Shown: one piece after another, positions 1 to 55,140 of the stretch
Numbering within the stretch: position 1 is the first letter of the stretch
Layout of the letters: each line of letters begins with the position of its first letter
Assembly (NCBI GenBank): GCA_030272155.1
Contig: CP126198.1
Span: 5,084,001-5,148,000 of the forward strand
DNA: 64,000 bases
Direction of reading: 5' to 3'
From: Tetradesmus obliquus
Lineage: Eukaryota > Chlorophyta > Chlorophyceae > Sphaeropleales > Scenedesmaceae
Notes under the pieces: model-generated
Databases searched by the model: none
Seen by the model: only the letters and a program-made list of their open reading frames with translations
What the model was told of the DNA's origin: nothing
Position numbers and translations under genes: made by a program

Positions 1-984
1 ACCCTATACGTCAATAAACATCAATCAATTAGCATGTTCTTCTTCCAAAACACAGTAACATACTCAGCGGAGGGGTTGAGGTGGAAGATGGTCTGCTCGT
101 CCAGGTACTTCTCCGGCACCACGGGCTTCATCACATCCCACATATGTCGCATCATGTCACATACCAGCCACAATAACAACAAAGTAACAACAAGTGATAC
201 TCACCGGAGGGGTTGAGGTGGAAGATGGTCTGCTCGTCCAGGTACTTCTCCGGCACCACAGGCTTGATCACGTGCTCCATCAGCTCCTTGTGGATGGTCT
301 CGTTGCTCACGTCAGGGTTGTGCTGCGTGGAGATGAGGATGGTGTGCACGCGCACAGGCACCACGGCGCCGCCCTCCTTCTTGTACTCCACAGTCACCTG
401 GAGAAGCAGAAAAAGCAGCAGCAGCAGCAGCAGCAGCAGCGTTACACAGTGCACAGGCACCACGGCGCCGCCCTCCCTCTTGTACTCCACAGTCACCTGG
501 CGCAAAGGCAGCAGCAGCAGCATAACATCAAAACAAAACCAGTTACACCTGCATCAGCCGTCGAAGCGCAGCCAGGGGCAGGTGCTTTTCTTGCGCCTCT
601 TCCATGAGCCAAAAACCACCAGAACAGGACATTTGACAACAAAGCACCAACCACCTGCTGCTTGGCGTCAGCGCACAGCAGCACGCAACGGCATGTCTAC
701 AGCTTCAACTTCATACCAAAGAACATAGCATACATCTGGGTCCTGCCGTCTGGGCACAGCCAGCCGCATGCACCGTTGTTGCGGACCTCGGTCAGCCGAC
801 AACCCACACAACAGAACATTGACAACAACGCACACACACACCCGCTTCAAGACGTCTGCACGAGGCCAGGGGCGCATCCCTGGCTACATTTTTGAGCCCA
901 GGCACAGCGCTGACAAGGCACACCACGTGCTGTTGCCAAACAAGCGCTAAGCACACAAGATATTGCACACACAGCACAATTGGC

Positions 985-1015
<31 letters not shown>

Positions 1016-3147
1016 CCCATGTGCCATTCTTGCGGACCTCCGTCAGCCGACAACCAGCACAACATAACATTGGCAACAAAGCACACACCACCCGCTTCAT
1101 GGCGTCTGCACGAGGCCAGGGGCGCATCCCTGGCTACATTTTTGAGCCCAGGCACAGCGCTGACAAGGCACACCACGTGCTGTTGCTGTTGCCAAACAAG
1201 CGCTAAGCACACAAGATACTGCACACACAGTACAATTGGCACCTGTCTTGCCGTCTGGGCGCAGCCAGCCGCATGTGCCGTTCTTGCGGACCTCCGTCAG
1301 CCGACAACCAACACAGCAGAGCATTGACAACAACGCACACACCACCCACTTCAAGACGTCTGCATGAGGCCAGGGGCACATTCCTGGCTACATTTTTGAG
1401 CCCAGGCACAGCGCTGACGAGGCACACACACCCGGGTGCTACCAAAAAGCCAGAACACTGCACAAATGCAATCCTCAACCACGCACCTGGGTCTTGCCGT
1501 CTGGGCGCAGCCAGCCGCATGTGCCGTTCTTGCGGACCTCCGTCAGCCTGTAGCCGATCTTGGTGGCCAGCACGTGAGTCAGCGGCATCAGCTCATCTGT
1601 CTCGTCGCAGGCGTAGCCAAACATGTGGCCCTGGTCACCTGCATGCATGCACAGTGATGCGTGGTGAGACTTTGTGTGAATGTGTGTTGCATTTGTGCGT
1701 GGGCGGCATCGGCTCATCTGTCTCATCGTAGGCATAGCCGAACATGTGGCCCTGGTCACCTGCGGCAAGATAGTGCGCAGTGGCACAGTGTGAGGATGCT
1801 TTGAGTTGCGTGCGTCAGCAGCATCAGCTCAGCGTCCCGTCGATTTCATGGCTCAACATGTGGCCCTGGCCGCATGTTGAGTACAGCATGCACGCACAGG
1901 CAAGGACATGCTGCGGGGTTGTGCATATGCTGTATACGCGAGGGGAGGCGGCAGCGACTTCCTGCTCATAAGCATCACACAAGCCGGCTGGCACAGAGCG
2001 TCACAGTATGTGTGCAGATCCACAGGTTTATGGCTGCACCTTGCTGCTTCGAAGGCTTTTGAGTGCAAATGAGCGGAACTGTGGCCTTTATAGCGGGCGT
2101 GATCTGGATGATTGCACTGCGAGATTGAAGGCGAGATGCAAGGAAACTACAGCTGTTTGTTCCTGGCGTCAAAGGGCCTTCATTGTCAAAGACGAAATGC
2201 AAATGCATGCAACTACTGCTGCACATAACAGCACGCGGGTGCTGCAGCTGCTGCGTTCATACCAGAATTCACGCTGCTGCGCCAGCAGCAACTTTTCAGC
2301 TCCTGCAAGGGCCATTGCCATGTGCTGTCCTGCACACTGTTGCTGTAGCTGCTGTCCTGCAAGCTGCTGCTGTCCTGCAAGCCCCACACACCTGCACCGG
2401 TCTCCTCCAGGGTCTTGGTGCCCATGCCGTGCACGCCCTGGCCAATGTCAGGGGACTGCTCCTCGATGTGCACCAGCACCTTGCAGGTGTCTGCATCCAG
2501 GCCCACGTCCTCGGAAGTGAAGCCGATGCCCTTGCAGGTCTTGCGCACAATCTCCTCGTAGTTGACCTTAGCCTTGGTGGTGATTTCACCGAAGACCATC
2601 ACCATGCCGGTCTTGGTGGCAGTCTCGCAGGCCACCTACGATTCCGAATGCAATATAGATTGATAAGAGGGCTGCGGGGCGCACGCTGCTGTGCTAGCGG
2701 TTCGAAGCTGCGACTGTTCTAGCGCAGCACACTCTGGGAGCTGGATTCCTGACAAAGGCTGCTGCGCACCTTGGAGAGGGGATCCTGCTCCAGGCATGCG
2801 TCCAGAATGGCATCGGACACCTGCGTTGGGGATCAGCAGGCAGGGGCGAGAAGCACCCGATCAGCTGCAGTGCGTGCCAGGCGCCCAAACAGGCGTAGGT
2901 AGCGGTTGAGCTGGCCAAGAAGCATAATGCATGTCGCAAAGGAACATTTGCAATCGGTGTGATGAAGGATTGCAACTGCTGCTGCTAGTGTGTGCTCTGG
3001 ACGAGGGCCACGCCCCTATGCTCAGCCCCACTGCTGCTGCTCTATGGGAATCTAGCGCGCCCGCACCTGATCGCACAGCTTATCAGGGTGTCCCTCATTC
3101 ACAGACTCTGAGGTAAACAGGAAGTTGTCGCCGTGCAGGTTGGCCAT
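1..3147 (-). CDS. SAMS: S-adenosylmethionine synthetase, N-terminal two thirds
   Basis: The enzyme makes S-adenosylmethionine from methionine and ATP in the cytosol. Exons on the minus strand are 3067-3147, 2770-2820, 2392-2635, 1487-1638 and 205-397; every junction keeps phase. The start ATG is at 3147 ([20 protein letters not shown]). The ATP-binding GHPDKLCDQ motif lies near residues 19-27 and the family signature [12 protein letters not shown] spans the exon 3/4 junction. Exon 5 carries [16 protein letters not shown]. About 240 residues lie in the window out of the roughly 390 usual for the family. The last exon ends in phase 1 at a GTGAGT donor, so the C-terminal third, including the second signature, is left of base 1. 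Four introns are swollen by partial copies of exon edges, annotated separately. Donors are GTGCGG, GTGCGC, GTGTGT, GTGCGT and GTGAGT. Family assignment is very secure. Confidence 0.96.
60..140 (-). repeat. Echo of the 3' edge of synthetase exon 5
   Basis: This stretch repeats the last 60 or so coding bases of exon 5 (residues around [18 protein letters not shown]). It lies downstream of exon 5 within the next intron. The true exon edge is at 205-270. The copy has lost the clean GT donor context (CGCTGAG follows), so it is probably not spliced. Confidence 0.8.
440..502 (-). repeat. Echo of the 5' edge of synthetase exon 5
   Basis: A second copy of the beginning of exon 5 ([15 protein letters not shown], with Lys changed to Arg) precedes the true exon start at 397. 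It is separated from it by a CAG tract. The AG acceptor context differs (TTGCGCCAG). Confidence 0.8.
735..1445 (-). repeat. Tandem array of the exon 4 donor edge, period about 245 bp
   Basis: Three further copies of the end of exon 4 ([19 protein letters not shown]) start near 735, 980 and 1225, downstream of the true edge at 1487. Each is joined to the same intron segment containing CACGAGGCCAGGGGC and TGAGCCCAGGCACAGCGC. The unit therefore spans exon end plus intron. Decay increases with distance. The nearest copy lacks two bases before its donor. The next has two amino-acid changes. The farthest has four and its donor GT has become AT. Confidence 0.88.
1680..1880 (-). repeat. Echoes of the 5' edge of synthetase exon 4
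   Basis: Two copies of the start of exon 4 ([10 protein letters not shown] and following residues) lie upstream of the true acceptor at 1638. One occupies about 1690-1757 and is well kept, including a CAG acceptor. The other, about 1800-1880, is degraded. Confidence 0.8.
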
Positions 3148-5840: not shown

Positions 5841-5885
<45 letters not shown>

Positions 5886-6123
5886 AGTGGCGGCTGGGGC
5901 GTGTGCGGCAGCATTTGCTCTGTGTCTTGCTGCTGCTGCTGCTGCTGCTGCTGCCTGTCAAGGCCTGCCTGCTCTTTACTGTCGCTTGCACAGCTGCTGC
6001 TACTGCTGCTGCTTGGGCTGCTGCTGCTGCTACTGATGCTGCAGTCGCCACCAAGTTGCTGCTCGGCAGGATCTCCCTGACGGTGCTGCTGCTCCGGCCG
6101 CATGCTTTGCCGGCTGTGCATCA

Positions 6124-6163
<40 letters not shown>

Positions 6164-13760: not shown

Positions 13761-16700
13761 CCTTGGGCATCGCTGCTGCTGCTGCTGCTGCTGCCACATC
13801 TGCATCTACCAAGCCGCTGCAACCGCCGGCAGACACACTCGTCGCACCCGCGCCAGCGCTGCTGTTGCTGCTGCCGCCAGCACCGTCGCAATCCGCAGCG
13901 CATATCTCGCCGCTGCTGCAGCTGGTGTCCGGGCTTCCAGCAGCAGCAGCAGCAGCAGCAGCGCCCTTTTCATCCCCTGCCTTAAACACCCGCCGCCACG
14001 ACAAGCTCCACTTGCCATACAGCCCCTCAAGCTTCTTCGATTCCCATTTGCGCACATCGCTGCTGCTGCTGCTGCTGTCAGAGCCGCCGGCTGCTGCTGC
14101 TGCAGCTTCCTGGGACTCTACTGCTCGCTCCGCAATCGCGCGCTGCAGCCGTTCCGCAAGGGCTGCGCTCGGCGGCTCGCTGCGCGCGAGGCGCTGCAGC
14201 TCGGAGACAATCTCTGTGAAGGTGGGCCTGCGGAACGGAACGTTCCCAAGCGTTCCGAAGCGTTCCAAGACGTTCCAAACAGGTGAGCAGCAGCAGCAGG
14301 GCATGCCAAGGTCAGAGCACTGCCTCATCCCATACCGAGGTTGTGTGGGTGTCATGCTCTACAGCAATGCGTGCCCCTGCTGCTGTTGCTGTGCAATCCA
14401 GGCGCTGCTTTGAGCTCTGGTACTATATGACTGGCACTCGCATTCATCACCGTGCTGTTGCAAGGGCCCTGTGCTCCATCTGACGCGCTTCCCTAGGCCA
14501 AACAGACCACGCACATGCACAGCTCCCAATCGCATCCCCTCACTTGTCCTTTCAGCCATCACGAGCAACAACAACATAGCACAAGCAACAGCGCATCTGA
14601 GGCAAACAAAACCCAACTAAACACAACTGAATCAACTTCAGGACAGCGCACCGCATGTGTGGGTCGTGGCACCAGCACAGATCAGCCAGCTGCAGCAGGC
14701 CCTGCCAGTCCGGGCTGGCCTTCAGCTGCGGCGGCCAGGCTGGCCGCAGCTGCTTGTTGATCACGCAGTGGCCCAGCAGCGGCTGCGGCACGTCTGCAGA
14801 AAGAAGCGCGTTTTGTTTGTGTTGTGAGCACCAGCATACGTGCCGAGCAAGGAGGGGCAGCGCAGCTGCTTGTTAGATGGAAGGAAGCCACGCGGCTCCC
14901 TTCTATCTTTGTTGATCACACAGTGGCCAAGCAGCGGCTGCGGCACGTCTGCAGTGGGCAAAATGAGGGAAACAAGAAAAAAGCTGTAATGTTGATCTAT
15001 CTTTGTTTGTGACGTCGACAATGCGGCAGGCGGGCCGCAGCTGCTTGTTGATCACATAGTGGCCAAGCAGCGGCTGCGGCACGTCTGCAGAAAGAAGCGG
15101 GTTTTGTTTGTGTTGTGAGTGCCAGCATATGTGCCGAGCAGAGAGGGGAAGAGCAGTATTGGTTGAATACGCAGTGGCCAAGCAGCGGCTGCGGCACGTC
15201 TGCAGAAAGATGCGTGTTTTGTGTGTGTTGTGAGTACCAGCATATGTGCCGAGCAAGGAGGGGCAGCGCAGCTGCTTGTTGATCACACAGTGGCCAAGCA
15301 GCGGCTGCGGCACGTCTGCAGTGCGCACAATGAGGGAAACAAGAAAAAGCTGTAATGTTGATCTATCTTTGTTTGTGACGTCGACAATGCAGCAGGCGGG
15401 CCGCAGCTGCTTGTTGATCACGCAGTGGCCGAGCAGCGGCTGCGGCACATTTGCAGGAAGGCAGCAGACCTGGTCTAATAGCTGACCAAGGTGATATACA
15501 TATATATAATCCATTCAACAAAACCCAGGATTCTGGAAACTTTTGTGAAAAACAACCAATGTTCTAGTTAGTTATGCCTCTAGTGAAACTCTCATCAAAG
15601 GAGGTCTTTGGCGAGTTCACTAGAGGCACAACTTAAGTAGAACATTAGCTTTCTTCACAAAAGTACCCGTGATCCTAGTTTTGTGCAAGGGTCTCGAGAG
15701 GCATAGGCAAAACCAACATCACAGTACCAAATCAGCGACAAACTTAACCATCATGTACCAACCTGCAAAACGCTTGCTGTTTGTGGCCATATCCCACAAA
15801 AGCACGCTCACAAAACAAGAACAGCAACGCCATGCAGCAAAGAAGCAATGTATGGTCTCAGACCTTGTGTTCAACCTGTTGTGGCTCATGGTGCCCGGAC
15901 CCACATGTAACTATCCTCTCTCAAATGTGCCAACCTGCGACGCGCTTGTTTTGGTTGCCAGCTCCCACCGCAGCATAACCCTAGAACAAGCTCGGCATTG
16001 CAATGCAATCAAAAAGCAGCACAACAACCTGCGAAGTGCTTGCTGTTGGTGGCCAGCTCCCACAGCAGCACACTCGTAATACAAGAACAGCAACGCACTG
16101 CAACAGCAGAGACTACAACCCTCCAGCAAAGTTTATAGTCAAAGGCAAACAACACATTACAAACCGAATAATTGGTAAACCCCAACCGCAAAAACTTCAA
16201 CCAACCTGCAAAGGGCTTGCTGTTGGTGGCCAGCTCCCACAGCAGAACGCTCACGAAACAAGAGCAGCAACGCCATGCAGCAACAAAGCAGTGCACCAAC
16301 CTGCAAAGACGGCTTGTTTTTGTCGCCAGCTCCCACAGAAGCACAACCCTAGAACACGCTCGGCATTGCATTGCAACAACATAGTAGCACACCAACCTGC
16401 AAAAGGCTTGCTGTTGGTGGCCAGCTCCCACAGCAGCACACTTGCAACACAAGAACAGCAACGCACTGCAACATCACCCCCAGCAAAGTCCACAATCCAC
16501 AGGCAAAGCCAATGTTACAACACCACACAATTGATGAACCATACCGCAAATAACAACCCCAACCCACCTGCGAAGGGCTTGCTGTTGGTGGCCAGCTCCC
16601 ACAGCAGCAACCTCACAAAACCAGAACAGCAACGCACTGCAACAGCACAGACTACAAGCCTCCAGCAAAGTTGAGAGTCAAAGGCAGAGCCAACATTACA

Positions 16701-19700
16701 ACACCAACATATTGATAAACCCAACCATAAATGACAACCCCCACCAACCTGCAAAAGGCTTGCTGTTGGTGGCCAGCTCCCACAGCAGGATGCCGTATGC
16801 GTACACGTCACTGGCCCTGCTGCAGCGCCCATGCATCAGCAGCTCCGGCGCCTGCAGCAGCAGCGGCAGCAGAAGCAGCAGAAGCAGCAGCAGAAGCAGC
16901 AGCAGAAGCAGCACACGCAGCAGAAGCAGCAGCATAAATGTATGAACAGATACTATACAACACGCATGTGCAAATCGGGCAGGTAGCACAGCACATAACA
17001 TGTCACTTGACGTGTTGCGTTGGCTGGACCGTGTTGTACTGCCACTAGTCGGCTGGCCCCATCCAGACAGGTTGTGCGTGGGGGCGGCGCATGCTGTGTT
17101 GTTGTTGGCTGCTGCGAGTGCTTTATGTTACCACATTGTGCACACAGCGCCATGCTCAAGCTGCCACAACTCAAGCATCCCAGCCCAGCACGATCCATGC
17201 CTATGCGGCAAGCTGTTACGTAGGTGTGTGCAGGGTTGACAGGCAGAAGCTGGCTGAGCGCCTACCATGTGTGTGGGTGTGCCGCAGGCTTTGGTCATGT
17301 GTGTTGCGCCTGGGTCTAGCACAGTGCTAAGGCCAAAGTCAGACACCTGCGGCAGTATGCACAATTGGGCCAACTCAGCGTCCTTGATTGTGCCTGTTAC
17401 TTCAAAAGCGCTGATCGTCGACCCAGGAAAGCGTCGAAACGCACATCATGCGCTCGTTGATGGTGCGTGCATAACAGCAGGATTCAGCTCGCAACTGTTT
17501 GTGTGGCGCTGGTCAGGCAGCCGCAAAGGATGATACTGCTGCCGTGCAGGACATCCATCAATAGCAGGAGCCAGCAGAGGTCATCATCATGCAACAGTGA
17601 CACCAGGCATTCTGAAAAGAATGCAGTGACGGCAGCTGCAAATGCCAAACCATCAGACAAACCGAGTTGAACCCACCTTGCCCACCAGCTGCCCATGCTG
17701 TATAAGGCTCAGCCTGCTGACCCTGCTCCGTGCGCTGCCGCTGCCGCTGCTCTGCTGCACGCCCCTGCTGTCATCGGCATCGCCGCTGCCGCCGCTGCCG
17801 CCGCTGCCGCCGCTGCCGCCGCTGCTGCCTGCGTTGCTGCTGCTGTCGTAGTTGGTGCGCCTGCCGCTGCTGCTGGTGGCCGACATGTTAAGCTTTAACA
17901 AGACATTAGAGGCCTTCAGGTCGCTGTGCAGCACCTTGTTCTGCGGCAGGGAAAAATAGTAAAGCAGCAAGAACAATGGCAGCACGATCCTGTTGGTTCA
18001 TAGCCGGCAGCAGAGCAGCACATTTGAGGCGTTGAGGTCGCAGCACCTTGTTCTGTAGTGCAAGACAAACAACACATGACATAACAATTAAGAAGTGTCA
18101 GCGCAGGATATTTGTTTTTGTGCACACTACAGAAGACGTTTGCGGCTGCTGAGCACATCAGTCACAACAATGTCTCCCGTAACATGCAGCAAGCAAGCAT
18201 ACAAAACACTCGACCTACAACCAGCTGCAGCGCACACTGTGAGCAGCCAGCTGCAGAGCAAGAGGCAGCAACACGCGCACTGTTTGATATATCATGTGCT
18301 GCGCAGCTATAATCACAGCCAGATACCTAGAACAGGGCGCACGCTGCCACACGCACCTTTTGAAGGTACTGCATTGCACAGGCCACGTGCACTGTTCATG
18401 TGATGTGCTGCACAGCAGCCAACTCAGCCACATGGGTGCATGCTGTGCTGCCACACGCACCTTATGAAGGTACTGCATTGCACAGGCCACGTGCAGTGCC
18501 AGGGCCAGCAGGGTGGGCTTGTGATTGAGCCCGGTGCTGCGGTCCACCAGCAGGTGCGCGTTGAGCGTGTCACGCAGCGTGCCCTGCAAACACAACACAA
18601 TCAGGCAACTCAGTACCGCAAGGCAACTCAGTACCGCATATGACTGCTCAGGCGGTCTACCAGCAGGTGCTCGTTGAGCGCGTCGCGCACAGTGTCCTGC
18701 ACGCAGAGAGACAGCAAGGCAACTCAGTACTGCATATGACTGCTCAGGCGGTCCACCAGCAGGTGCGCGTTGAGCGCGTCACGCAGCGTGCCCTGCACAG
18801 GCACACAATCAGGCAACTCAGTACTGCATACAACTGCTCAGGCGGTCTACCAGCAGGTGCGCGTTAAGCGCGTCACGCAGCGTGCCCTGCACATACATAC
18901 ACAATAAGGAAACTCAGCAGCCCACATCGCTGCACAGCAACATGGTGGAGCTTGCACTACAACCAAAGACGGCTGCATGCATGCAGGAGAGCTGCCCATG
19001 CAGTCTACCAGCAGGTGCGCGTTGAGCGCGTCACGCAGCGTGCCCTGCACATACACACACCAATAACAATGATGGCAACTCCTTGCGTACCGCATACCAT
19101 TGCTCAGATATGGACAGAGTGTGAGACACAGCTGCCTGTCCTTGCAGGGCTCGCAGCCTTGCATATCATTTGAACATTATAATACCAAAGTGACGCATGG
19201 AGAGACACCATGACAAAGCAACGCCTACTCCAGCCCTTGCACCAGACTAAGCCTGCTGATGCACCTTGTCGGGTGTCATGTCACAAATGTTACATAAACA
19301 ATAAAAATATAACGCACCTGGTCGCAATACTCCTGGATGATCTGCATCTCCCAGGGCACCAGGTCAGGGTTGCTGCTGGCCACGCCTGCCTGCCTGTGGG
19401 CCTTAAAGGCAGGGTGCAGCGAGATGCTGTACACTGCCACCAGGTTGGGGTGGCACATGCTGCTGCCGATGGCGGCTTCCTGCATGATCACAAGTGACGT
19501 TGCGGGTAGGAAGCACTGGGTCAAAGCAAGTTGTCAAAAGAGTGTCAGGGTTGCACAGTGCCGTAACGGCTTGCTGCGGCTTGCAACAGGCATGCAACAA
19601 GGTAGCCAGTGATGCTCCAGCTTCTCCCTCAACCAGCATCTGCAGACAGATTGCAAGTGCGGGGTGCAGCGAGATGCTGTACACTGCCACCAGGTTGGGG

Positions 19701-22700
19701 TGGCACATGCTGCTGCCAATCGCGGCTTCCTGCATAACACAGCATGTATGAGAGGCGCAAAAAAAGTACGTAACGTTGGGTCAGGGCGAGTGAGTGAGTG
19801 AGCGGCAGGGTTGCGCAGTGCAGGGACGGCCTGCTGTGGCTTGCAACAGGCATGCAAAAAAGTAGCAAGTGATGCTCCAGCATCTGCAGACAGATTGCAA
19901 GTGCGGGCTGCAGCGAGATGCTGTACACTGCAACAAGGTTGGGGTGGCACATGCTGCTGCCGATGGCAGCTTCCTGCATAACACAGCATGTATGAGAGGC
20001 AGTTAACACCAGGTTGAAACGAGTGTGGGCCTTGAAGGCAGGGTGCAGCGAGATGCTGTACACTGCCACCAGGTTGGGGTGGCACATGCTGCTGCCGATG
20101 GCGGCTTCCTGCATAACACAGCATGTAATGAGAGGCAGTTAACACCAGGTTGAAACGAGTGTGGGCCTTGAAGGCAGGGTGCAGCGAGATGCTGTACACT
20201 GCCACCAGGTTGGGGTGGCACATGCTGCTGCCGATGGCGGCTTCCTGCATAACACAGCATGTATGAGAGGCAGTTAACACCAGGTTGAAACGAGTGTGGG
20301 CCTTGAAGGCAGGGTGCAGCGAGATGCTGTACACTGCCACCAGGTTGGGGTGGCACATGCTGCTGCCGATGGCGGCTTCCTGTGCAATTAAACATGCATG
20401 ACAGGCACAGAAAACGTAGGTAACGTTGGGTCAGGGCGAGTGAGTGAGTGAGCGGCAGGGTTGCACAGTGCGGCGACGGCTTGCTGCGGCATACATAGAA
20501 TACATTGCCAGCCGCTTCGCTTGAACGCTTGCATGCGATATGCATTTTGTCGAAAAGTTCCATGCAGCCTCTTCCTTTCCGGCTTCATTATGCACGCCGC
20601 ACCTGCACAGCCATCTCCTCTGCAGGATTTATGTGTGCCTGCTTGCGCTGTCGCACGCAGCTCGCTGAGGCAGGTCCTCCCACAGCACATTCACCAACCA
20701 CCAGCTCAACAACCTCCAACTGCCACACCAGCCACTTCGCTGGCATGTTTACATGCATGCAAACTGCAATATCTCCGTCAACACGATGCATTCACAGCTG
20801 CATGTAGCCTGATTCTGTCAAGCTTCATGATGCACGCCGCACCTGCACAGCCATCTCCTCTGCAGGGTTGCTCAGCGCCTGCTTGCGCTGCCGCACGCAG
20901 CTCGCTGACGCGGGGTCCTCCCACAGAACAGCGCCCTGCATGCTGCCGCTCCGCCGCTCCGCAACAGCAGCCAGCTTACTGCCGGGTGGGAGCTTGATGG
21001 CTTTGACCGCAACATCAGCCCCGTGCCAGGTGCCCCTGCAGCAACATGCCAATGTGGCAGTTGTTAACAAAGAGGTTGCTATTTGCATGTACGCGTGAGT
21101 TTTTAGTAGCGGCTTGCTGCCGGGTGGAAGCTTGATGGCTTTCACTGCCACATCAGCCCCGTGCCAGGTGCCCCTGCAATGCAGGTTGAGCAGTAAAGTG
21201 ATGTCCAAATGTCTCTCAAATCGCATGTAGAGGTTGAGCATTCGATGTGGTTCAACAGCAACGTCAGCGCCATGCCAGGTGCCCCTGCAATGCATGAAGT
21301 GTTCAGCCTGTTGATGTCGTGGCTGGCTTGTATAGGTCCCTGGTGTGGCTTGGATTGCTTTGGAGAGCGATTGAAGTGCTGCCAAAGATAACAGATGGAC
21401 CCACCTGTAAACCACGCCAAAACCGCCTTGTCCAATGACCTCATGCAGCACCAGGTCAGTGCTGACGTCATCATCCACATCAGCCTCATCACCAGCAGCA
21501 CTGCCGGCCTCAACAGCAGCAGCAGCAGCAGCAGCAGCAGTGTCGACGCCCGCTGAGCTGCTGCCAGCGCCCAAGCTAGCACTGCCTGTGCCGCTGCCAG
21601 CACCATTCAACTGCCTGCTGGATCCCCTCCTGCTGCTGCCACTCCCTGCCTCTTGCTGCTTCACCTGCATGCTGCTAGTGATGCGCGAATGGTGGATGCT
21701 GCGCACTTGATCACTGATCGCTGCAGTGAGCCGCTGGCCGCGATTGCTTTGCTGCAGGCCTTGATCGCTCCCCGAGCCTGTCCTGCCATGTAGGGCCTCA
21801 AACATGCCATACACAGGCTCGTAAACCGGCTCAACAGCACAGCCGCCATTTGCAGGACTAGTATTGCCTGCTGCGCAGCCCCAATCTGGCACAATGTTGA
21901 AAGTTGAGCCGCCGTGTATGCCGGCGCCCTGGCAGCTAAGAGAGGCTTGATCTGAGATCAGCAGCAGCTGCTCCGGAGTTGGCAGCAGCAGCTGCGAGCT
22001 TGCGCGCTGCGAGCTGCTGCCGCCAGAGCCCACACTGCCTCCCACCACACCAGCAGCAGCAGCAGCATTCTGATCTGTTGCTCCGCTGCTGCCATGGTCG
22101 CTGTGTTCGCTATCTGCAGCTCCCTTGGACAATGAGTTGTAGCCGTTCGAATGCTTCGCTGCATTGTGCAGCGACGCGCCGGCCCGTGCGTGCCTGCGTG
22201 CCCGGATGTTCCAAGCCACAAACAATCCCGCTACCAGCAGCAGCACGCACGCCGCGACAGCGCTGAGTACAATGCCAGCAGCTGCACCTGGCGAGAGGTT
22301 GCCGCTGCCTTGCTGGCTACCGCTGGGCCCCACTTGCAGGATGCTGCCTTGGGCGGGGAAGAGGTAGGATTGAGGCATTGCTGCGCGCTGGTCAGGGTTT
22401 GGCAGCAGCAGTATGTCACTGCCGACGATGCCTGGCCCCTCGAATCTGCCGACATGGATGCAGCAGCTGCCGAGTGTGTGCGCGGCTGTCAGGTGCATCT
22501 CAGTGCCTGCAAGCAGAGGAAAGAACACTTGGTGATGACATAGTTGTGTGTCTGCAAAGGGCAGCAGCTGACACACAGCTGACGCCGCAAACAAGGCAGC
22601 GCAGCTGCTGGGAGTTGCACGCAACACGAAAGGCTCTGCCATTGTTCCGCTCCATGAAGTTGTGCAGTGCTGCCAACATCAATTGCCGCATATTCTGCAG

Positions 22701-35477: not shown

Positions 35478-35512
<35 letters not shown>

Positions 35513-36944: not shown

Positions 36945-36980
<36 letters not shown>

Positions 36981-44965: not shown

Positions 44966-44989
44966 CCTGCCAAACCTGCCCGCCTCACC

Positions 44990-45025
<36 letters not shown>

Positions 45026-48000
45026 CTGGGCCTGCACAGCAGCATCACCTGCTGCTGCTGCTGCTGCTGCTGTTTCTTCAGGCCCTGCCGGCGCTGCTGC
45101 ACGTGCAGCAGCAGCAGCAGCTGCGGTTTGGCCACTGGTGTCCAGAGCCTGCATGAGGCTAGTCAAACCAGCAGGCGAGCCGAGCCCAGCAGACTGCTGC
45201 TGCTGCTGCAGATCTTGCAGCGGCTGCAGCGTGCCTTGCTTGCCAGCAGTGGCAGCAGGCCGAGGTGCAGCAGCAGCAGCAGCAGCAGGGCTGCCAGTGC
45301 CTGAGCTGCTGCTGCTGCCGTTTGCTGCATACTGCTGGCCCATCACAGCAGCAGCAGCAGATGCAGGAACAGGCACATCATCCAGTTCCATAACCTCAGC
45401 AGCAGCAGCAGCAGCGCCTGCTTGCTGCATGCGCTGCATACCGTTGCTGCTAGCAGCAGCAGCAACAGGCAATCCCTGATCCTGCTGCTGTCTTGCATCT
45501 GTCTGCCTGGCAGCTGCCACATCGCTCTCATACAACTGCTGCTGCTGCTGCTGCCGCTGGCCGTTTGCTGCTGCGGCAGCTGCACCAATGTGAGCAAGCT
45601 GAGCATCCCTCAGCTTGGGGTTGAGGTGGCCTGCTAAGCCCTGCTGATGCACGCCCACTATACCCTGCTGCTGAACCGCAGCTGTGCCTGATGGCCGGCT
45701 CAGTCTGCTAAGCCTGCTGGGGGCACCGCCAGCAGCAGTAGCAAGCATTGGCATCCCCGCTGCTGCCATAGCAGCAGCCTTACCGGCTGCGGGCCTTGGT
45801 CCATAGCCATACCCTGCTGCTGCTGCTGCCACGCCGCCGGCAGCATCATCACTGCTGCCCCTGAACCCGAAGCCCTGAGGTCCCTCCGGCCCAACCGAAG
45901 CAGCAAAACCGCCAGCAGGCAATCCCTCAAAACCCTGCATCGCTGGCATGCCATTGCCGGCTGAACCGCCAAACCCGGCATGCTCTGTACCGCCTATACC
46001 TGCGGATCCTCCAAACCCTGACAGGCTGCTTAAACCGCTGCCGCCGGCACCGTTAAACCCCAGCCCCTCGACGCCGCCGCCGCCACCCACAAGACTCAGC
46101 GCCCTGTATGTGCTGGAGGTCCCACCGCCAGCAGCAACAGCAGGCGCGCCGCCGCCGCTGCCTCCACCCCATCCTTGCTGCTGCTGCTGCTGCTGCTGCT
46201 GTGCGGCATGCATTAGAGCAGTGAAGATCGGGGACTGTGACCCTGCCGGCTGTGCTGCTGCTGCATCGCTGGCTGCGGGCAGTTCGCCGCTGTTTTGCCG
46301 TCCAGATCGTGTGCCGTTGCTGCCGTTGCCTGATATTGCTGGCTGCTGCACGGTGGTTAGCAGGAAGCCCTTCATGACTGGCACAAACACCTGACAGCAG
46401 CAGCAGCGGCAGCAGCAGCATGACATAGCACATGATGAGATGGCACATCAGGAAATCGCACATGATGAGATGGCGCATGATCAGATGGCACATTTAAGAT
46501 GACACAGAGGACGATGACATAAGATGAGATGGCACATCATGGTGCTGCCGCATAAGTCAGCGCTTGCTCACTGATATTAAACCAATACCACCAATGCCCC
46601 CTCCATAAAAGCATGAGATGGAGGTGAGATGCACACAAAGAGCACAGCGCTGCTCACCGCGTTGTAGAAGGCGATGATGTCGCCCGTGGCCTGTGTGACC
46701 AGGCCCGGGTCGGTGCGCTGCAGCGCCACGCTGCGGAACGCCTCCTGGCGCGCGTGCGCCTGGCGCTTGTAGTGGCTGATGATCTCGCGGAACGTTATCT
46801 GCGGGCGTTACATAACAATGTGATAACATTGTCAGACCCAGAACCTGTCGCTGGTGATCAGATGTGCGGCAGATGCCATGATTGACAAGATGGCAATACG
46901 AAGCCATAGATCAGACCAGCAACACACCAGGTATTTCAGAGCCTTCAGCACACATCCCTAAAACCGCACCTGGTGCAGCCAGTTGACCTTGCAGTAGCCG
47001 TACAGGCTGGCCAGCAGCAGCGTGTCAAAACTGCATTTGCACTGTAAACCACAACCCCCAGAACCCCAAACACCCAGCCTAAACCGCACCTGGTGCAGCC
47101 GGTTGACCTTGCAGTAGCCGTACAGGCTGGCCAGCAGCAGCGTGTCCAGGTGGCGGCCGTAGAAGAGGTGCGTGTGGCAGTACAGCGCGTGGCCCAACAC
47201 CTCGTGCACTGCTGCCAGCACCTCCTCTCCCTCCATAGGCGTAAAGTCCAGCCCGTGGCTGCAGATACACAACAGAAACAACAACAGCAGCAGGTCAGAT
47301 GGGCTTTGTGTTGTTATGATGTGGTTTGGTGTGCGGCAGCAGGTGTGGCCCAGCACCTCGTGTACTGCTGCCAGCACCTCTTCACCCTCCATTGGGGAGA
47401 AGTGCAGCCCATGGTTGCAGGTAAAACACAAGATACACAACAGAATCAACGACAGCAGCAGGTCAGATGGGTTTCGTGTTGTTATGATGTGGTTTGGGGT
47501 GCGGCAGCAGGTGTCCCAGCACCTCATGTACTGCTGCCAGCACTTCTTCTCCTTCCATGGGTGAGAAGTCAAGGCCGTGGCTGCAAGTGGGGAGCGAATT
47601 AAACAAGGGCAGAAATGGGCGTGAAACAGACAGACAGGGTGCACGCAGTGGCGGCGCAGGCAGAAAAACACAGCAGAAGTCAGATGGGTGCTTGTTTTCC
47701 TTCAAGGTGTTTGTGGCCCAGCACCTCATGTACTGCTGCCAGCACCTCCTCACCCTCCATTGGGGAAAAGTCAAGCCCGTGGCTGAAAAATCAGCACAAG
47801 ATACAAGACACAAACGACAGAAGCAGCAGGTCAGATGGGTTTCGTGTTGTTTTTGGTGTGTTGTGGTGCGTGACGGCTTATCCCAGCACCTCCTGCACTG
47901 CTGCCAGCACCAGGGTGCTCACCCTCCCAGCTGAGAGTCCAGACCGCGGCTGCAAAACAATGCACAAACAGAATGCAAGGGGCAGAGCTTACAGCACATG

Positions 48001-49230
48001 AGACAACTGTCCTCACCTGACAGCCACCAGCCTGAACGCCGCCAGCTTCAGCAGCTTGCGGCAGTGGTCGTGCAGCACCGCACTGGCTGCACAAACATAT
48101 TCCACACTGTAATAAACACTGTCAAAACACTCACCTGACAGCCACCAGCCTGAACGCAGCCAGCTTGAGCAGCTTGCGGCAGTGGTCATGCAGCACCGCA
48201 CTGGCTGCACAAACATATTCCACACTGTAATAAACACTGTTAAAACACTCACCTCACAGCCACCAGCCTGAACGCCGCCAGCTTGAGCAGCTTGCGGCAG
48301 TGGTCGTGCAGCACCGCACTGGCTGCTCATACAACTTCTACACTGTTACAAACACTGTTATAACACTCACCTGACAGCCACCAGCCGGAACGCAGCCAGC
48401 TTCAGCAGCTTGCGGCAGTGGTCATGCAGCACTGCACGAGCCGATGCATCACCGCCAGGCGGCAGCGGCGAGCCAGGAGCACCGATCGCCCTCGGCAGAG
48501 GATGCTCGGGTTCAGCTGGAGCAAAGGCCTCTGCAGCATGCGGGTGTGACGCCACACCACCGTCTGCTGCTCGCTGCCGCTTGGGCACTAGGTCAATGTT
48601 TGTGGCGTCTGCTGCTGCTGCTGCTGAGGAGTCTTGCTCCATGGGTGCCGGTGAGCCACGAGAATCGGCAGCAGCAGCAGCAGCAGCCTCGCTGCCAGGT
48701 GTAGCACGCTTGCGCGAGCCTGCTGCTTGCTGCTGCTGCTTCTCATCCGTATCTTCTGCCTGCTGCTTGTCAGCAGCTGCCGCGGGTGCAGCTCCCTCTG
48801 CCATGTTTGCATCCTGCTGCTCGGCAGAGGCAGCGGCATCACCTCCTGCAGACCCGCCAGATGCTGCCGGCTCGGCCGCGCCCTGCTGCTGCTGCTGGCC
48901 TGCTGCTGCTCGTGCCAGCCTGTAGAAGCTGCTTCCAGGGGCCCAGCCCAGGCTCTCCAAGATCTTCTCCTCAACAGTGAACATGTGGCGCTTCAGCTCC
49001 CTGCAACAAACCGCAAGGAAACATCATAATTCACTATGTTTCATTCTCTGAAACGTCAGGCTCTCCAGGATCCTCTCCTCCACGTAAAGCATGTGGCGCT
49101 TGAGCTCCCTGCAGTAGACAAACATCAACAAGTTCCCGATCAGCAACAACACTTTACTTGAGGAGAACAGGCCAGGCTCTGCAGGATCTTCTCTTCCACG
49201 GTAAACATGTGGCACTTGAGCTTCCTGTTT

Positions 49231-49275
<45 letters not shown>

Positions 49276-52200
49276 AATGTCCAATGACAAAAGGCCCAAT
49301 GAATTGCTCAGGTCAGCGCCCAACTCAGACCATAGCTAATCAACTCAACCACAACCCTGCTCGACTCACCTGGGCAGGCTCGGCACCGCCTTCACAAACG
49401 GCCCGATCATCTTGCTCAGGTCAAACGGCTCAACCCCAACCATACTTGATTCAACTCAGCACAACTTTGCAACCTACTCAACTCACCTTGGCAGGCTGGG
49501 CACCGCCTTGACAAACGGTCCGATCATCTTGCTCAGGTCAAAGGGCTTCAGGCCCAGCTTTCCGGGAATAGCAGGGAAGGACAGCAGGCCCACGCGGTAG
49601 GCAGCCGCCACCAGCTCGAAGCAGCTGTAATAACAATGGCCCGATCACTTGCACAACTCAGCACAGCCTATTCAACTCTAAGCAAACCCCGCTCAACTCA
49701 AACCCTCACCTGGGCAGGCTCGGCACTGCTTTCACAAACGGCCCGATCATCTTGCTCAGGTCAAAGGGCTTCAGCCCCAGCTTGCCAGGAATGGCAGGGA
49801 AGGACAGCAGCCCCATGCGGTAGGCAGCCGCCACCAGCTCGAAGCAGCAGGCCAGCAGGCACTGGTGGAAGGGCCAGCGCGTGAGCAGCGAGCAGGCTGC
49901 GGGCAGGCCTGCACGAGCCTCCTCGGCGCGTAGCATGGTGTCCAGCACATGCCAGTAGATCTTGATGCCCTGCATATGGGTGTGTTGAGTGTGTGTGCAG
50001 AGAGAGATGGCGGGGATGTGAGGGCAAGCAATGACAGGAGGGTTGTGATACAGGGGCCAGATGGTATGCAGTGCGCTGCGTTACCTTCAGCAGTGAAACA
50101 GCACGTACCGCACACAATATGCATGCAACACACTGCACTCCCTGCAACAAACAGACAAGTAGCAGCAGCAGCAGCGCACCTCGTCCCGCCGCTCCTGCGC
50201 CACTCCCTGCTGCAGCTCAGGGAAGCCCAGCCGGCTCCCCGCGCCCGCAGCAGCGCCGACACCACCACCCAGAAACACCGCCGCAGCAGCCGCCGCCACC
50301 CTCTCGGACAAGATGCGGCCGGCATCTGCCCCTGCAGCATCCATGATGCGCTGCACTGTGCCAGGAGGCTGCAGGGCGAGCTCCTTCACTGTGTTTTTGA
50401 GCCAGGCCACTGACCCCATGGCTTGGCTGATAGGTGTGGCTGGCCCCGGATGGCCGAGTTGCATCAGCGGCAGCGGCGACTGCAGCCCAATCGACAGCGG
50501 CCGCCGCGCGGCAGCAGCAGCAGCAGCATTTGCGGCAGCAGGCGGCGCCAGCGGCGGCTTCGCAGGGTGCTGCTGCTGAGCGGGATGTGAATGTGAGGCG
50601 CTGCTGCTGCCAGCGCCTGCTGCTGCTGCTGCTGCGGCATGTGTGGCGGCTTGCGCGAGGCTGCTGAGGGTGCCGGGCCCACCGGCAGCAGCAGCAGCAG
50701 CAGCAGCAGCTTGGTGTGGCAGTGCTGCTGCTGCTGCATTGTCTGCGCCTGGCAGTGTGCGGGGGCTTGCGAGGCCTCCAAAGTCGTGCAGCAGGAAGTC
50801 TCGCTCGTCAATCTCGCCCTGGGTTGCAAGGAATTTGGAGTAGGCCTCATCCAGGCTCAGCACCAGCTCCGACAGCTGCTGCGGCTTGCTGGTCAGGCCC
50901 TCCACGTACAGCCTGCAGCAGCAGCGGCAGCAGCAGCAGCAGCGCAATGCAGTTGAGCAGGGCAACCATACAGCAAGCCGAGCAGACAGACCAATGCGGC
51001 TTGCTGGTCAGGCCCTCCACGTACAGCCTGCAGCAGCAGCGGCAGCAGCAGCAGCAGCAGCAGCGCAATGCAGTGAACTAGGGCAACCAAACAGCAAGCC
51101 GAGCAGACAGACCAATGTGGCTTGTAGGTCAGGCCCTCCAGGTACAGCATGCAGCAGCAGCAGATGAACATACCTCAAGCAGAGCTGACAGTGCAGTGCG
51201 GATTGTCATATCACAACAACAAGGCGCATGTTTGCATGTACACGTGAGTGCAAGCACACAAATCCTCTCGGCATTATAGCACAGCACGACACATGAATCA
51301 CAATGGAAGCACCGTGATTCGCACTCAGCCGCACTCCCACCTGCAGCAGGTCTCCAGCTTGTCGGCCTGTGGGTGTGGCCGCCTCATACATTTTTTCTCA
51401 ACCAGCAGAAACAACAGCTATCAACATCTAATGACCGCCCGCTCACCTGCAGCAGGTCTCCAGCTTGTCGGCCTGTGGGTGTGGCAGCGTTGCGGGCAGC
51501 GGCTGCGGCAGCCATCCCAGCTGCGCCTGGCCCAGGCTGCCCCAGAAGGCGTCCTCTATCTGCGGCATCAGCGCCTGCACACAACAGACAACAGAAGGCG
51601 GGGCAGCAGCAGCAACAGCAGCAGCAGCCAAGGTGAGGCAACAGCAGGGCAGGCAGCAGCCAGGCTGCCCCAGAAGCGTCCTCTATCTGCGGCATCAGCG
51701 CCTGCAGGGCAGCAGCAGCAGCAGCTGAGGCAGCAGGCGCAGCAGCAGCAGCAGCAGCAGCAGATGAGGCAGCCGCAGCAGGTGGCAGCAGGGTAGGTAA
51801 AAGCAACCGTAGCAGGTGACATGGCCGCTGGCCTCAACGCCGCTGTCAGCCGCATATCACAACAGAAATAACACGATTCGCTGCCACAATTATGGAAGAA
51901 GTTTGAATTACTTGGAATATGAATTCAAATTCAAACTCTGAAATGACAATCGCACCTATTTCTTGCCGTAGTCCACGCGTGCCTGAATGCACAGCGCCTT
52001 CAGCAGGCTGAACCTGCACTGGCCCTCTACATTTGTTACAAACCCCAAAATAACATAAAAACGACACCGCGTTTCAAATTCAGGCTTCAAAATGACAGCC
52101 GCACCTTTGCCTTGCCGTAGTCCACGCGCGCCTCAATGACAGCGCCTTTGAGCAGGCTGAAGCGCCCGCTCGCCCTGAACAATCGCCACAAACCCCACAA

Positions 52201-55140
52201 TAACAGAAGTAACAATGCATACAGTCATTCAAACTTCAAAATGACAGCCGCACCTTTGCCTTGCCGTAGTCAACGCGCGCCTCAATGCACAGCGCCTTGA
52301 GCAGGCTGAACCTGCCGCTGGCCTCGATGGCAGTGGGTGAGCCAGACTGCAGGGCAGCCAGCTGCTGCTTGCAGGCTGAAGCGCTCACTGGATGCAACAT
52401 GTGTCACAAAACCCCAAATCAACACAATCAAACCTGGTCTTTTCTATGTTCTAAATACCACTCATCACATATTCAATGTCGCACCTTGTCTTTGCTGTGG
52501 TCCAAGCGCGCCTCAATGCACAGCGCCTTGCGCAGGCTAAACCTGCTGCTGGCCCTCTACATTTGTTACAACCCCAAAGTAACAAAAAGTGACACTGCTT
52601 ACAAAATCAAATCCAAAATGACAGCCGCACCTTTGCCTTGCCGTAGTCAACGCGCGCCTCAATGCACAGCGCCTTGAGCAGGCTGAACCTGCCACTGGCC
52701 TCAATGGCAGTGGGTGAGCCAGACTGCAGGGCAGCCAGCTGCTGCTCGCTGTAATTGGTGCTGGCCAGCAGCAGCGCCAGCACACACACCAGCAGCTCCA
52801 GGCAGCTGCGGCACGGCAACGCAGAAGCAACACCAAACAGCAAGCAGGCAGCAAGGTGCAGCACGGTCAGAGGTCCGCTGTGCTGGGTTTGGAGGTGGGT
52901 GCTGGCCAGCAGCAGCGCCAGCACACACACCAGCAGCTCCAGGCAGCTGCGGCACGGCAACGCAGAAGCAACACCAAACAGCAAGCAGGCAGCAAGGTGC
53001 AGCATGGTCAGAGGTCAGCTGTGCTGGGTTTGGAGGTAGGTGCTTGCCAGCACACACACCAGCAGCTCCAGGCAGCTGCAGCACGGAAGCAAGTGGGACA
53101 GAGGCAGTGTTCAGAAAGTGATACTGGTAGTAAGGAGGCAGCAAGGGCGAGCATCGTGCTGGGTTTAGCTGTGCTGGGGTGTGAGCGCGTGTGTTTGGCT
53201 GTGGCGGTGGCGTTTGCTTGCACTGCAACTGCACGTGATCAGCCGTCAATGTTTGAAAGCTGCTGCAAGGTACCCAAAGCATTGCTGCAGCGAACGAGTG
53301 CATTGAGGCTGAAGCCGAAATCACTGCTGCGGCCTTGCCATTGCCGCGGCCTGACTCGCTGCCGCTGCTGCGGCTGCATGTTGTGTAGCCTGCACTGCAA
53401 CTGCATGCCCGCAACTCCCTCCCTGTGGCTGCTGCTGCTGCTGCTGGCCCCTGCTTCTGCGCTTGCTGCAGACCGCTGCTCAACCAATGCTGCTGCTCCT
53501 CCTACCACAACCGTGCCATAGTGCGACTGCTGCTGCTGCTGCTTCAAATGCTGCTACTGCCTTAGTTGCTGCGCCCGCTGCCACCGCTGCTGCCACCGCT
53601 GCTGCTGCTCCTGCTGCTGTTGCCGCTGCTGCTGGCCGCACCTGACAAGGTCTGGGAAGCCTGGCAGCAGCTGCGCCTTCACCACCAGGAAAGCCAGCCA
53701 GCCTGCGCGCAGCAGCGGCTGCTGCGGCTGGCTGCTGCTGCAGCTGCGCTGCACGTGCCAAAACAAGTCCTGCAAGCAATGCAAGCAGCACAGACACAAT
53801 ATCAGATGATCAGCCGCAGCAAGGACTCAAGTCAACCCACAAGTCAACCTATAGTTATGCATATGATGACGCATGAGATAGGGTGGGTCATATAGGGGCT
53901 GCGGTTTGGTGTCACGAGAGGATCAGGTGACAGGTGGTTGGCGTGGTTGGTGATATGATAGACAGTGCTGATCTGCGCAATGCCTCTGCTGCTGGTGCTG
54001 AAGGAGCTGCTACGCTGCTGCTGCTGCTGCCTCTACCGCACTGATCTGATATGCTGTCTCCTGTGCGTTGAGCCATTTGCTGCAGTGCTGGTTAGCTTTG
54101 AGCAGTGCTGATCCTGTTGCACGCTGTGCTGCTGGTGCTATACATAAGGTTGCATTGTTGCTGCTGCTGCACTGCCATGATGATGCAATTATCCTTTGGC
54201 ATCAAGCAACCCGTTGCAGTGCTGCCTGTAGCTTCACCCATCACGTCAGGTGTCGATTGATCGAAGGATTCAATACAGCGCATGTGCGATTATGTGCTAC
54301 TGCGGCTCGCGGGTCACCATACTTTACCCCCAATTACCACTGCTGCTGCATGCCACTGCTGCGTGCCCCTGCTGCAAGGCACGCACCTTGTACTTGTTGC
54401 TGATGTGCTGCAGCGAGACCAGCGTCTCCTGCCACTCCCGCAGCCGCAGCTGCTGCTCAATGTTGTCAGCTGCGCTGCCTGCTTGCTCCAGCAGCGTGGG
54501 CTTCAACTTGTTCAGCACCACAGGCAGTTCTTTGAAGAACGAAACCAGGCTGCAGACGGACAAACGGAAGCATTTGAAGAAAGTAACGTGATTGGCCAGG
54601 CGGACGGAGGGAATATGCAGGCATTTGCCGGGAACAGTCCACCGCTGGTGCTTTGCTGCTGCTGCAAATACATTTGCTGAGCTGCCGCTGGCCGGCTGGC
54701 TGCAGCATGTTCGAGGGCTTGAGATTCCGCTTGGCTCAACGCACTTGGTGTGGGATGTGCTGAGCAGCTCGCTCAGCGGCAGGCCTGCAGCAGGTGGCTC
54801 CCCCGCCCTGGCGCCATCAGCAGGCTGCTGCTCCGGCTCGCCCAGCAGGCCTGGAATGCTCTTAATCAGCCAGACAATGCATGGGCGCCAAACATCCTCG
54901 CCAGACTCCTGCGATCAGAGCCACAACGTTTGGCAGAGAGCGCGGGATGTGCTCGCACTAGTGCCACCGGCCAGCTCGCCGGCTGCTTACCACTGAAAGC
55001 GATGCCGAAGATGGTGACTCAGACTCCAGAACGCGACAGCAGGCTTCATACACCGCTGTGGCGCGAGCTGCCTGGCCATCTCCCCCTCTTAGGCGGTCTT
55101 TTAGCAGCGACAGCATATCAATCTGCTGCTGTGCAGCCAT
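44936..55140 (-). CDS. RBR: Retinoblastoma-related protein (RBR, MAT3-type)
   Basis: RBR proteins repress E2F/DP-driven genes and couple cell size to division in green algae. Twelve exons encode 1431 residues: 54991-55140, 54745-54908, 54387-54549, 53642-53769, 52631-52805, 51447-51574, 50180-50912, 49710-49969, 48371-49000, 47090-47258, 46658-46798 and 44936-46390. The N-terminal domain shows SFFKELPVVLNKLKP and GWLAFLVVKAQLLPG. Pocket A (about 460-670) includes TPISQAMGSVAWLKN, FHQCLLACCFELV and SLPRELKRHM. A Gln/Ala/Ser spacer separates pocket B (about 815-965), which includes RHLDTLLLASLYGYCKVN and FREIISHYKRQ. The residues matching human Tyr709, Lys713, Tyr756 and Asn757 of the LxCxE cleft are kept (about Y890, K894, Y945, N946). 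The C-terminal 480 residues are Ala/Gln/Gly-rich, making it longer than Arabidopsis RBR1. Several introns hold exon echoes. Confidence 0.95.
46968..47035 (-). repeat. Echo of the 3' edge of RBR exon 10
   Basis: The end of exon 10 (LLLASLYGYCKVN-LHQ with GTGCGG donor; true edge 47090) is repeated at about 46972-47030, with Arg changed to Trp in KVNWLHQ. Confidence 0.88.
47335..47965 (-). repeat. Four echoes of the 5' edge of RBR exon 10
   Basis: The start of exon 10 (HGLDFTPMEGEEVLAAVHEV; true start 47258) recurs ending near 47418, 47581, 47783 and 47952. The first three encode HGL-FSPMEGEEVLAAVHEV with almost only synonymous differences and a shared Thr to Ser change. The fourth is frameshifted. 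A single frame stays open from exon 10 back through the first two copies. Confidence 0.9.
48017..48318 (-). repeat. Three 66-nt cassette copies of the RBR exon 9 end
   Basis: Copies at 48253-48318, 48135-48200 and 48017-48082 encode AVLHDHCRKLLKLAAFRLVA, the first helix of pocket B, as does the end of exon 9 at 48371. Each is preceded by GCAGCCAG and followed by GTGAGT or GTGAGG. Each is phase 2 at both ends, so inclusion keeps the frame. All differences from exon 9 in the shared coding stretch are synonymous. Confidence 0.9.
49047..49228 (-). repeat. Two echoes of the 5' edge of RBR exon 9
   Basis: The start of exon 9 (ELKRHMFTVEEKILESL; true start 49000) recurs near 49050-49108 and 49168-49226. 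The coding content is little changed (ELKRHMLYVEERILESL; LKCHMFTVEEKILQSL). Confidence 0.87.
49231..49273. repeat. (GCA)14 microsatellite in RBR intron 8
   Basis: Fourteen GCA units lie immediately next to the farther exon 9 echo. On the coding strand they read TGC and would form a CTG-type acceptor tract. Confidence 0.95.
49363..49426 (-). repeat. Short echo of the 3' edge of RBR exon 8
   Basis: This copy covers FDLSKMIGPFVKAVPSLP with only synonymous differences and a GTGAGT donor. There is no good matching acceptor, so it looks like a partial copy. Confidence 0.85.
49487..49624 (-). CDS. Candidate alternative RBR exon (8b)
   Basis: This 138-nt segment copies the 3' half of exon 8, from CFELVAAAYRVGLLSF to AVPSLPR. 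It has its own acceptor (TTATTACAG) and donor (GTGAGT), both in phase 2 like exon 8, so it could be included or swapped without frameshift. Compared with exon 8 it has 12 substitutions; 11 are synonymous and one is Met to Val. That pattern implies protein-level constraint on this pocket A segment. Whether it is spliced into mRNA cannot be seen from DNA. Confidence 0.6.
50990..51168 (-). repeat. Two echoes of the 5' edge of RBR exon 7
   Basis: The start of exon 7 (LYVEGLTSKP; true start 50912) and its CTG-tract acceptor recur at about 50997-51065 and 51117-51165. The second copy encodes LYLEGLTYKP. Confidence 0.87.
51330..51385 (-). repeat. Echo of the 3' edge of RBR exon 6
   Basis: The end of exon 6 (PTGRQAGDLLQ-type reverse frame; coding HPQADKLETCC, true end 51447) is repeated at about 51337-51383 with a GTGGGA donor. 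Confidence 0.83.
51655..51710 (-). repeat. Echo of the 5' edge of RBR exon 6
   Basis: The start of exon 6 (ALMPQIEDA; true start 51574) is repeated at about 51658-51704, with a one-base deletion soon after the acceptor. Confidence 0.83.
51945..52560 (-). repeat. Four echoes of the 3' edge of RBR exon 5
   Basis: The end of exon 5 (FSLLKALCIEARVDYGKAK; true end 52631) recurs ending near 52487, 52254, 52106 and 51957. The copy 52254-52364 is 111 nt, has a CAAGCAG acceptor and GTGCGG donor, is phase 0 at both ends, and differs from exon 5 at two synonymous sites. The copy near 52106 has a compensating one-base insertion and deletion. The other two are degraded, one with a stop codon. Confidence 0.88.
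52890..53085 (-). repeat. Two echoes of the 5' edge of RBR exon 5
   Basis: The start of exon 5 (CLELLVCVLALLLAST; true start 52805) and about 60 bases of upstream intron recur at about 52898-53010. A shorter piece lies at 53040-53080. Confidence 0.87.

What the first reader, a model, noticed from the sequence alone, without database searches (positions are those of the whole stretch)
60..53085. Exon echoes: introns of three genes filled with tandem partial copies of adjacent exon edges
In the synthetase, receptor kinase and RBR genes, at least twenty exon edges recur one to seven times in the neighbouring intron. Each copy consists of an exon end or start, its splice site and some flanking intron. 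Donor-side copies lie downstream and acceptor-side copies upstream, so the outermost exon stays intact. I count roughly 50-60 copies. Neighbouring genes at 4508-8793, 30277-37210 and 38504-40968 show none. Inference: tandem duplications straddling exon-intron boundaries are tolerated because splicing can ignore the internal copies, giving a ratchet for intron growth and a supply of alternative splice sites. I know of no named process that matches this exactly.
Basis: seen in the sequence. Interest (0 to 1): 0.88.

Follow-up and report, generated by a model that had tools for sequence, protein, structure and literature searches.

The report
Exon edges echoed inside algal introns
In the green alga Tetradesmus obliquus many introns have grown by picking up extra partial copies of the neighbouring exon ends, complete with their splice signals, and these copies appear to keep swapping sequence with the real exon.

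Summary
The genome is Tetradesmus obliquus. In 19 modelled housekeeping genes, 93 of 201 introns carry such an echo, and length fits 319 + 136 bp per echo (r 0.79). Their mean is 462 bp, the published value for this species, against 230-302 in four other algae. Annotated proteins use the outermost exons; two annotated isoforms use an echo. Echoes are not cassette exons and carry frameshifts. Yet they are not simply decaying: differences favour synonymous sites beyond what a neutral copy allows, and exon and echoes hold shuffled variants that simulations without recombination never matched. Best reading: partial tandem duplication across a splice site, tolerated by splicing, then continued sequence exchange with the exon. 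Genes differ greatly in echo number; other families seem poorer in echoes, and a chromosome-size trend failed an independent test.

The parts
205..3147 (-). SAM synthetase exons within the window: 3067-3147, 2770-2820, 2392-2635, 1487-1638, 205-397
   Evidence: model equals annotated P0003
1695..1869 (-). two acceptor-side echoes of exon 1487-1638 (1695-1759, 1809-1869)
   Evidence: 88% and 80% identity
557..1302 (-). four donor-side echoes of exon 1487-1638 (1245-1302, 987-1048, 736-797, 557-610)
   Evidence: 100, 95, 90, 75%
445..496 (-). acceptor-side echo of exon 205-397; its acceptor gives annotated isoform P0002, 99 nt in frame
68..143 (-). donor-side echo of exon 205-397
   Evidence: 92%, donor lost
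14652..28331 (-). receptor-like kinase gene (predicted exons; kinase match at 16750-16860)
14814..15448 (-). five acceptor-side echoes of exon 14652-14793
   Evidence: 79-96%
15763..16607 (-). seven donor-side echoes of exon 16749-16851
   Evidence: 81-100%
18357..18394 (-). donor-side echo of exon 18461-18583
   Evidence: 95%
18652..19044 (-). four acceptor-side echoes of exon 18461-18583
   Evidence: 86-98%
19655..20379 (-). five acceptor-side echoes of exon 19318-19479
   Evidence: 93-99%
20603..20689 (-). donor-side echo of exon 20843-20978
   Evidence: 89%
22793..23123 (-). two donor-side echoes of exon 23298-23428
   Evidence: 93, 88%
23432..23605 (-). two acceptor-side echoes of exon 23298-23428
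   Evidence: 84, 93%
23988..24030 (-). donor-side echo of exon 24081-24154
   Evidence: 95%
44980..52805 (-). retinoblastoma-related gene (modelled exons)
52806..53075 (-). two acceptor-side copies of the start of exon 52631-52805 (starting at 52946 and 53075)
   Evidence: exact edge found by pattern
51962..52554 (-). four donor-side echoes of exon 52631-52805
   Evidence: 84-97%
51660..51703 (-). acceptor-side echo of exon 51447-51576
   Evidence: 100%
51341..51382 (-). donor-side echo of exon 51447-51576
   Evidence: 98%
50944..51148 (-). two acceptor-side echoes of exon 50180-50912
   Evidence: 84, 78%
49370..49625 (-). two donor-side echoes of exon 49710-49969
   Evidence: 91, 94%
49057..49222 (-). 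two acceptor-side echoes of exon 48371-49000
   Evidence: 81, 90%
48017..48330 (-). three donor-side echoes of exon 48371-49000
   Evidence: 87-96%
47331..47949 (-). four acceptor-side echoes of exon 47090-47258
   Evidence: 78-89%
46970..47026 (-). donor-side echo of exon 47090-47258
   Evidence: 98%

Best explanation
Exon echoes are partial tandem duplications with one breakpoint in an exon and the other in the adjoining intron. Shown here: copies carry the exon edge and its splice site, the inner breakpoint is not a splice site, and annotated proteins use the outermost copy. Inferred: such duplications survive because splicing can skip the inner copies, whereas duplications inside exons or over whole exons are mostly removed; introns lengthen by about 136 bp per echo. 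Shown statistically, with the mechanism inferred: after birth the intron flank drifts freely while exon edge and echoes keep exchanging sequence (gene conversion or unequal crossing-over, in cis or with other alleles). The exchange would multiply copies, keep echo edges and splice signals exon-like, and expose echo mutations to selection whenever they are copied into the exon. Some echo splice sites appear in annotated alternative isoforms.
For: 93 of 201 introns in 19 modelled genes (92 by BLAST, where 0 of the 109 others held a repeat of its own). 202 direct against 2 inverted repeats in 20 fetched loci. Splice dinucleotide kept in 189 of 210 echoes. Inner boundary splice-like in 17% against 22% in shifted controls; 8 of 32 putative lengths are multiples of 3. 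Length = 319 + 136 per echo, r 0.79; published mean intron 462 bp here against 230, 302, 284 and 270 in four other algae (PMC5966456, table passage). Base-standardised third to first/second position divergence 3.37 (95% 2.94-3.86) and 3.03 in the window genes; by my reasoning a neutral echo beside a constrained exon allows at most 2. Nonsynonymous rate 0.26 of the fourfold rate. Third-position divergence 0.148 in the 42 of 224 echoes without first/second-position change, dispersion 1.1-1.4. Four-gamete failure in 72 of 123 site pairs, 17 of 18 arrays; 960 simulations without recombination reached at most 44 and none of 600 earlier ones reached 72. Annotated proteins use outermost exons; isoforms using an echo in SAM synthetase and TCP1-alpha.
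Against: Prevalence is uneven: four of the 19 genes have none in 48 introns, and beside 165 adjoining exon pairs of other families a cruder proxy found only 9 echo-like hits (10 beside 51 in the 19 genes). 154 of 166 indels are not multiples of 3, so there is no lasting coding constraint. Exchange in cis and exchange with alleles were not separated. The distance effect in the four-gamete test is weak (P 0.034). The 12 window echoes without first/second-position change show only 0.073 third-position divergence, half of the main sample, which weakens the idea of a constant offset. Exon models are computational except where compared with annotated proteins. No reads, transcripts or second genome could be examined.
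Confidence: 0.6

Rival explanations
1. Simple tandem duplication straddling a splice site, tolerated by splicing, after which the echo decays neutrally with no further contact with the exon.
For: Whole-unit young copies exist (six pairs with flanks 97-99% identical); frame-breaking indels; edge preference is near the geometric expectation.
Against: Codon-position ratio 3.37 where at most 2 is expected, replicated at 3.03; first/second-position divergence stays near 0.075 while flanks become unalignable; four-gamete failures beyond simulations.
Confidence: 0.2
2. The synonymous bias is mainly population history: echoes sample old alleles of a very diverse, recombining population, with little direct exon-echo conversion.
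For: Nearly constant third-position offset and star-like three-way patterns (234 exon-unique against 652 echo-unique third-position sites); flanks as diverged as neutral sites.
Against: The diversity of this species was not measured here; the window genes show a smaller offset; sample flanks are often more diverged than fourfold sites.
Confidence: 0.15
3. Echoes are functional alternative exons kept by selection.
For: Two annotated isoforms use an echo; strong outer splice sites, donor median score 6.6 against 6.6 for true donors.
Against: Inner ends lack splice sites and no multiple-of-3 bias; 154 of 166 indels break the frame; echo retention of splice dinucleotides (189 of 210) is about what neutral decay gives.
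Confidence: 0.03
4. Assembly artefact, for example false duplication at haplotype switches.
For: Haplotype switching would also give synonymous differences and diverged introns (inference).
Against: Copies differ from each other, carry frameshifts, and occur up to seven per edge; the assembly has 17 contigs. Reads were not available.
Confidence: 0.02

Closest known systems
[quoted passage not shown] passages of PMC4974935 seen)
   Same: Tandem duplication inside a gene; splice signals inherited from the parent exon-intron structure; the protein can be kept by splicing.
   Different: Here existing introns are enlarged, copies are partial exon edges with one splice site, there are about 270 of them in 22 genes, and they appear to exchange sequence with the exon.
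Novel intron positions in Drosophila by tandem duplication of coding sequence (PMC2891723; abstract seen)
   Same: Duplication of exonic sequence with one copy becoming intronic.
   Different: Shifted intron positions in single genes rather than arrays of edge copies.
Human introns from tandem arrays (Zhuo and others 2007; recalled, not held)
   Same: Tandem arrays tied to introns and alternative splicing.
   Different: Recalled only; I could not compare details.
Concerted evolution of tandem copies by gene conversion (recalled)
   Same: Copies share a recombining pool of variants.
   Different: One member is a coding exon edge, the others lie in its own intron, and intron flanks are not homogenised.

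Membership tests
Intron gain by tandem duplication (AGGT model) | the duplication creates a new intron bounded by the two copies | tested here: not met
   copies lie inside longer introns in the nine introns printed; inner ends lack splice sites
Intron gain by tandem duplication (AGGT model) | intron absent at that position in relatives | not testable with these tools
   no DNA of relatives held; not attempted with proteins
Tandem or mutually exclusive exon duplication | copies bear both acceptor and donor and keep the frame | tested here: not met
   one-sided, 8 of 32 lengths multiples of 3; frame-breaking indels
Concerted evolution by gene conversion | copies exchange sequence | tested here: met
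   72 of 123 site pairs incompatible; simulations without recombination stay below; exchange in cis not shown directly
Concerted evolution by gene conversion | neutral flanks homogenised as well | tested here: not met
   about half of 60-nt flanks do not exceed the random-pair threshold even at 95% exon identity
Intronic minisatellite | repeats confined to the intron | tested here: not met
   92 of 201 introns have repeats that include an exon edge; none of the other 109 has a repeat
Introner elements | the same intron sequence dispersed among unrelated genes | not tested
   only copies within the same intron were searched

The most novel reading that the evidence does not exclude
Exon edges and their intronic echoes form recombining pools: the intron stores partial, allele-like spares of the coding exon's end that are written back and forth by gene conversion, so selection on the protein reaches into the intron, and the process itself enlarges introns across a lineage.
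Probability: 0.4. Interest if true: 0.85.

Novelty: new variant of a known kind. Interest (0 to 1): 0.7.

Why it matters
It gives a countable mechanism for intron lengthening (about 136 bp per echo in this sample) that could explain the longer mean intron of this alga, supplies ready-made alternative splice sites, and offers hundreds of natural experiments on splice-site choice between near-identical sites. If exon and echo really exchange sequence, selection on a protein constrains DNA inside its own introns.

Tried and rejected
Cassette-exon reading: rejected. A first gene finder over-spliced and was replaced. A model with a neutral echo beside a constrained exon was compared with the data and fails on codon positions. 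A trend seen after the fact, echoes commoner on smaller chromosomes (contigs 1-8: 13 of 90 introns, contigs 9-17: 80 of 111, summed; rho -0.85), was tested on other families and failed: median gap 276 against 284 bp, P 0.44, 165 pairs; the sizes of contigs 6 and 7 there were placeholders of mine. Adjacent introns of a gene are not significantly alike (P 0.16). Microhomology at inner junctions was not measured.

Rows dropped: L058 (one hit, no model). Only 3 of the 8 MCM gene clusters were fetched. Exons under 40 bp were merged into introns. Three of 61 window alignments were left out of the codon counts. One search needed 60 nt of intron beyond the echo, leaving 210 of 224. Overlapping repeat pairs were collapsed. 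Codon counts printed used wrong frames for two genes and are replaced.

Papers: ten searches listed nothing that, from title and start of abstract, describes this pattern. Passages were seen of PMC5966456, PMC4974935, PMC12899622 and PMC7590803, and the outline with abstract of PMC2891723.
Full report
What was checked. The window lies in contig 8 of a 104.7-Mb, 17-contig genome. An annotated protein identical to my SAM synthetase model names the species Tetradesmus obliquus (P0003, locus tag OEZ86_014638; its contig length, 5,918,163, is that of contig 8). Self-BLAST gives 55 direct and 1 inverted repeat pairs within 5 kb. With exon models I aligned 61 exon-edge copies at 25 of 72 edges; 58 of 61 reach the splice site.

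Is it general? The sample was taken by protein family, not by echoes: all multi-hit Cpn60/TCP1 genes (10) and all six class I aminoacyl-tRNA synthetase clusters, and 3 of 8 MCM clusters. Nineteen of the 20 loci gave models. Direct repeats within 2 kb outnumber inverted ones 202 to 2 in the 20 loci. Of 201 introns, 92 carry an echo by BLAST (31 donor, 35 acceptor, 26 both) and none of the other 109 holds a repeat of its own. With a second caller it is 93 of 201; intron length fits 319 + 136 bp per echo (r 0.79), with means of 316 bp without, 631 with and 462 overall. A published table seen (PMC5966456) gives a mean of 462 bp for T. obliquus and 230, 302, 284 and 270 for four other algae. Genes differ strongly, from 0 of 14 to 9 of 9 introns (heterogeneity P 2.7e-11). 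In other families (HSP70, kinesin, kinases, further MCM, aldehyde dehydrogenase, part of the rows) a cruder proxy gives 9 echo-like hits beside 165 adjoining exon pairs, against 10 beside 51 in the first sample. So 46% is not a genome-wide figure; the true share is probably lower.

What the copies are. Of 224 echo alignments, 210 reach the splice site with 60 nt of intron beyond; the splice dinucleotide is kept in 189. Their inner ends show no splice-site enrichment (17% against 22% in shifted controls, n 190) and no multiple-of-3 bias (8 of 32), so they are one-sided. Repeats of at least 85% identity involve an exon edge in 33 cases and intron only in 4, where random placement predicts about 3 to 1: geometry plus selection against coding damage can explain the edge preference; a mild excess is possible.

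How they evolve. The youngest pairs look like whole-unit duplicates: six pairs with flanks 97-99% identical and third-position divergence 0.03-0.10. Many others have lost recognisable flank similarity, about half even when the exon part is at least 95% identical, while first and second codon positions stay near 0.075 divergence. By my reasoning a neutral copy beside a constrained exon gives a third to first/second position ratio of at most 2 after correction for base composition; observed 3.37 (2.94-3.86), and 3.03 in the window genes. Nonsynonymous change runs at 0.26 of the fourfold rate and stops at 0.14, yet 154 of 166 indels break the frame. So echoes are not coding now but have spent much of their history as, or in exchange with, functional exon sequence. 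Third-position divergence is nearly constant across echoes: 0.148 even in the 42 without first/second-position change, dispersion 1.1-1.4, while first/second positions are overdispersed, 2.5; in the window genes the same class, 12 echoes, shows only 0.073. In arrays of at least four copies 72 of 123 informative site pairs fail the four-gamete test, in 17 of 18 arrays. Tree and star simulations without recombination, with rate variation and transition bias, gave at most 44 in 960 runs; none of 600 earlier runs reached 72. Exchange among copies is the simplest account. Whether it happens within one chromosome or with diverged alleles is open; the near-constant offset in the main sample points to alleles, but that is inference.

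Consequences. Annotated proteins use the outermost exons (P0003 and P0241; the TCP1-alpha query, partly edited by me, is listed at 100% to P0121). Two annotated isoforms use an echo. SAM synthetase P0002 has a 33-residue insert produced by the acceptor of the echo at 445-496, 99 nt in frame. TCP1-alpha P0123 repeats nine residues, which I trace to a 27-nt piece of an echo beginning near L040:9191, from the sequence printed. What transcript evidence lies behind these annotations is unknown to me.

Verdict. Real, found in many genes though patchy, and biologically interesting. I file it as a new variant of tandem-duplication gene evolution, not as a member of the classical intron-gain model.

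Noticed in passing
L039-L057: Echo frequency differs enormously between genes of one family: TCP1-alpha (L040) 9 of 9 introns, another TCP1-family gene (L045) 0 of 13. Chromosome size did not explain it on a second sample.
   Followed up: partly
window 14794-28154: Within the kinase gene the eight introns between 24155 and 28154 have no echo while several of the later introns are crowded with them.
   Followed up: no
window 48012-48437: Four copies of one RBR exon end differ in a mosaic way, while two of the roughly 50-bp intron pieces between them look nearly identical (read by eye; 2 of 3 informative site pairs incompatible).
   Followed up: partly
[quoted passage not shown] this might be an exon echo.
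   Followed up: no
window 44936-46447: Long CAG-type repeats coding for alanine and glutamine runs in the last RBR exon and elsewhere in the window.
   Followed up: no
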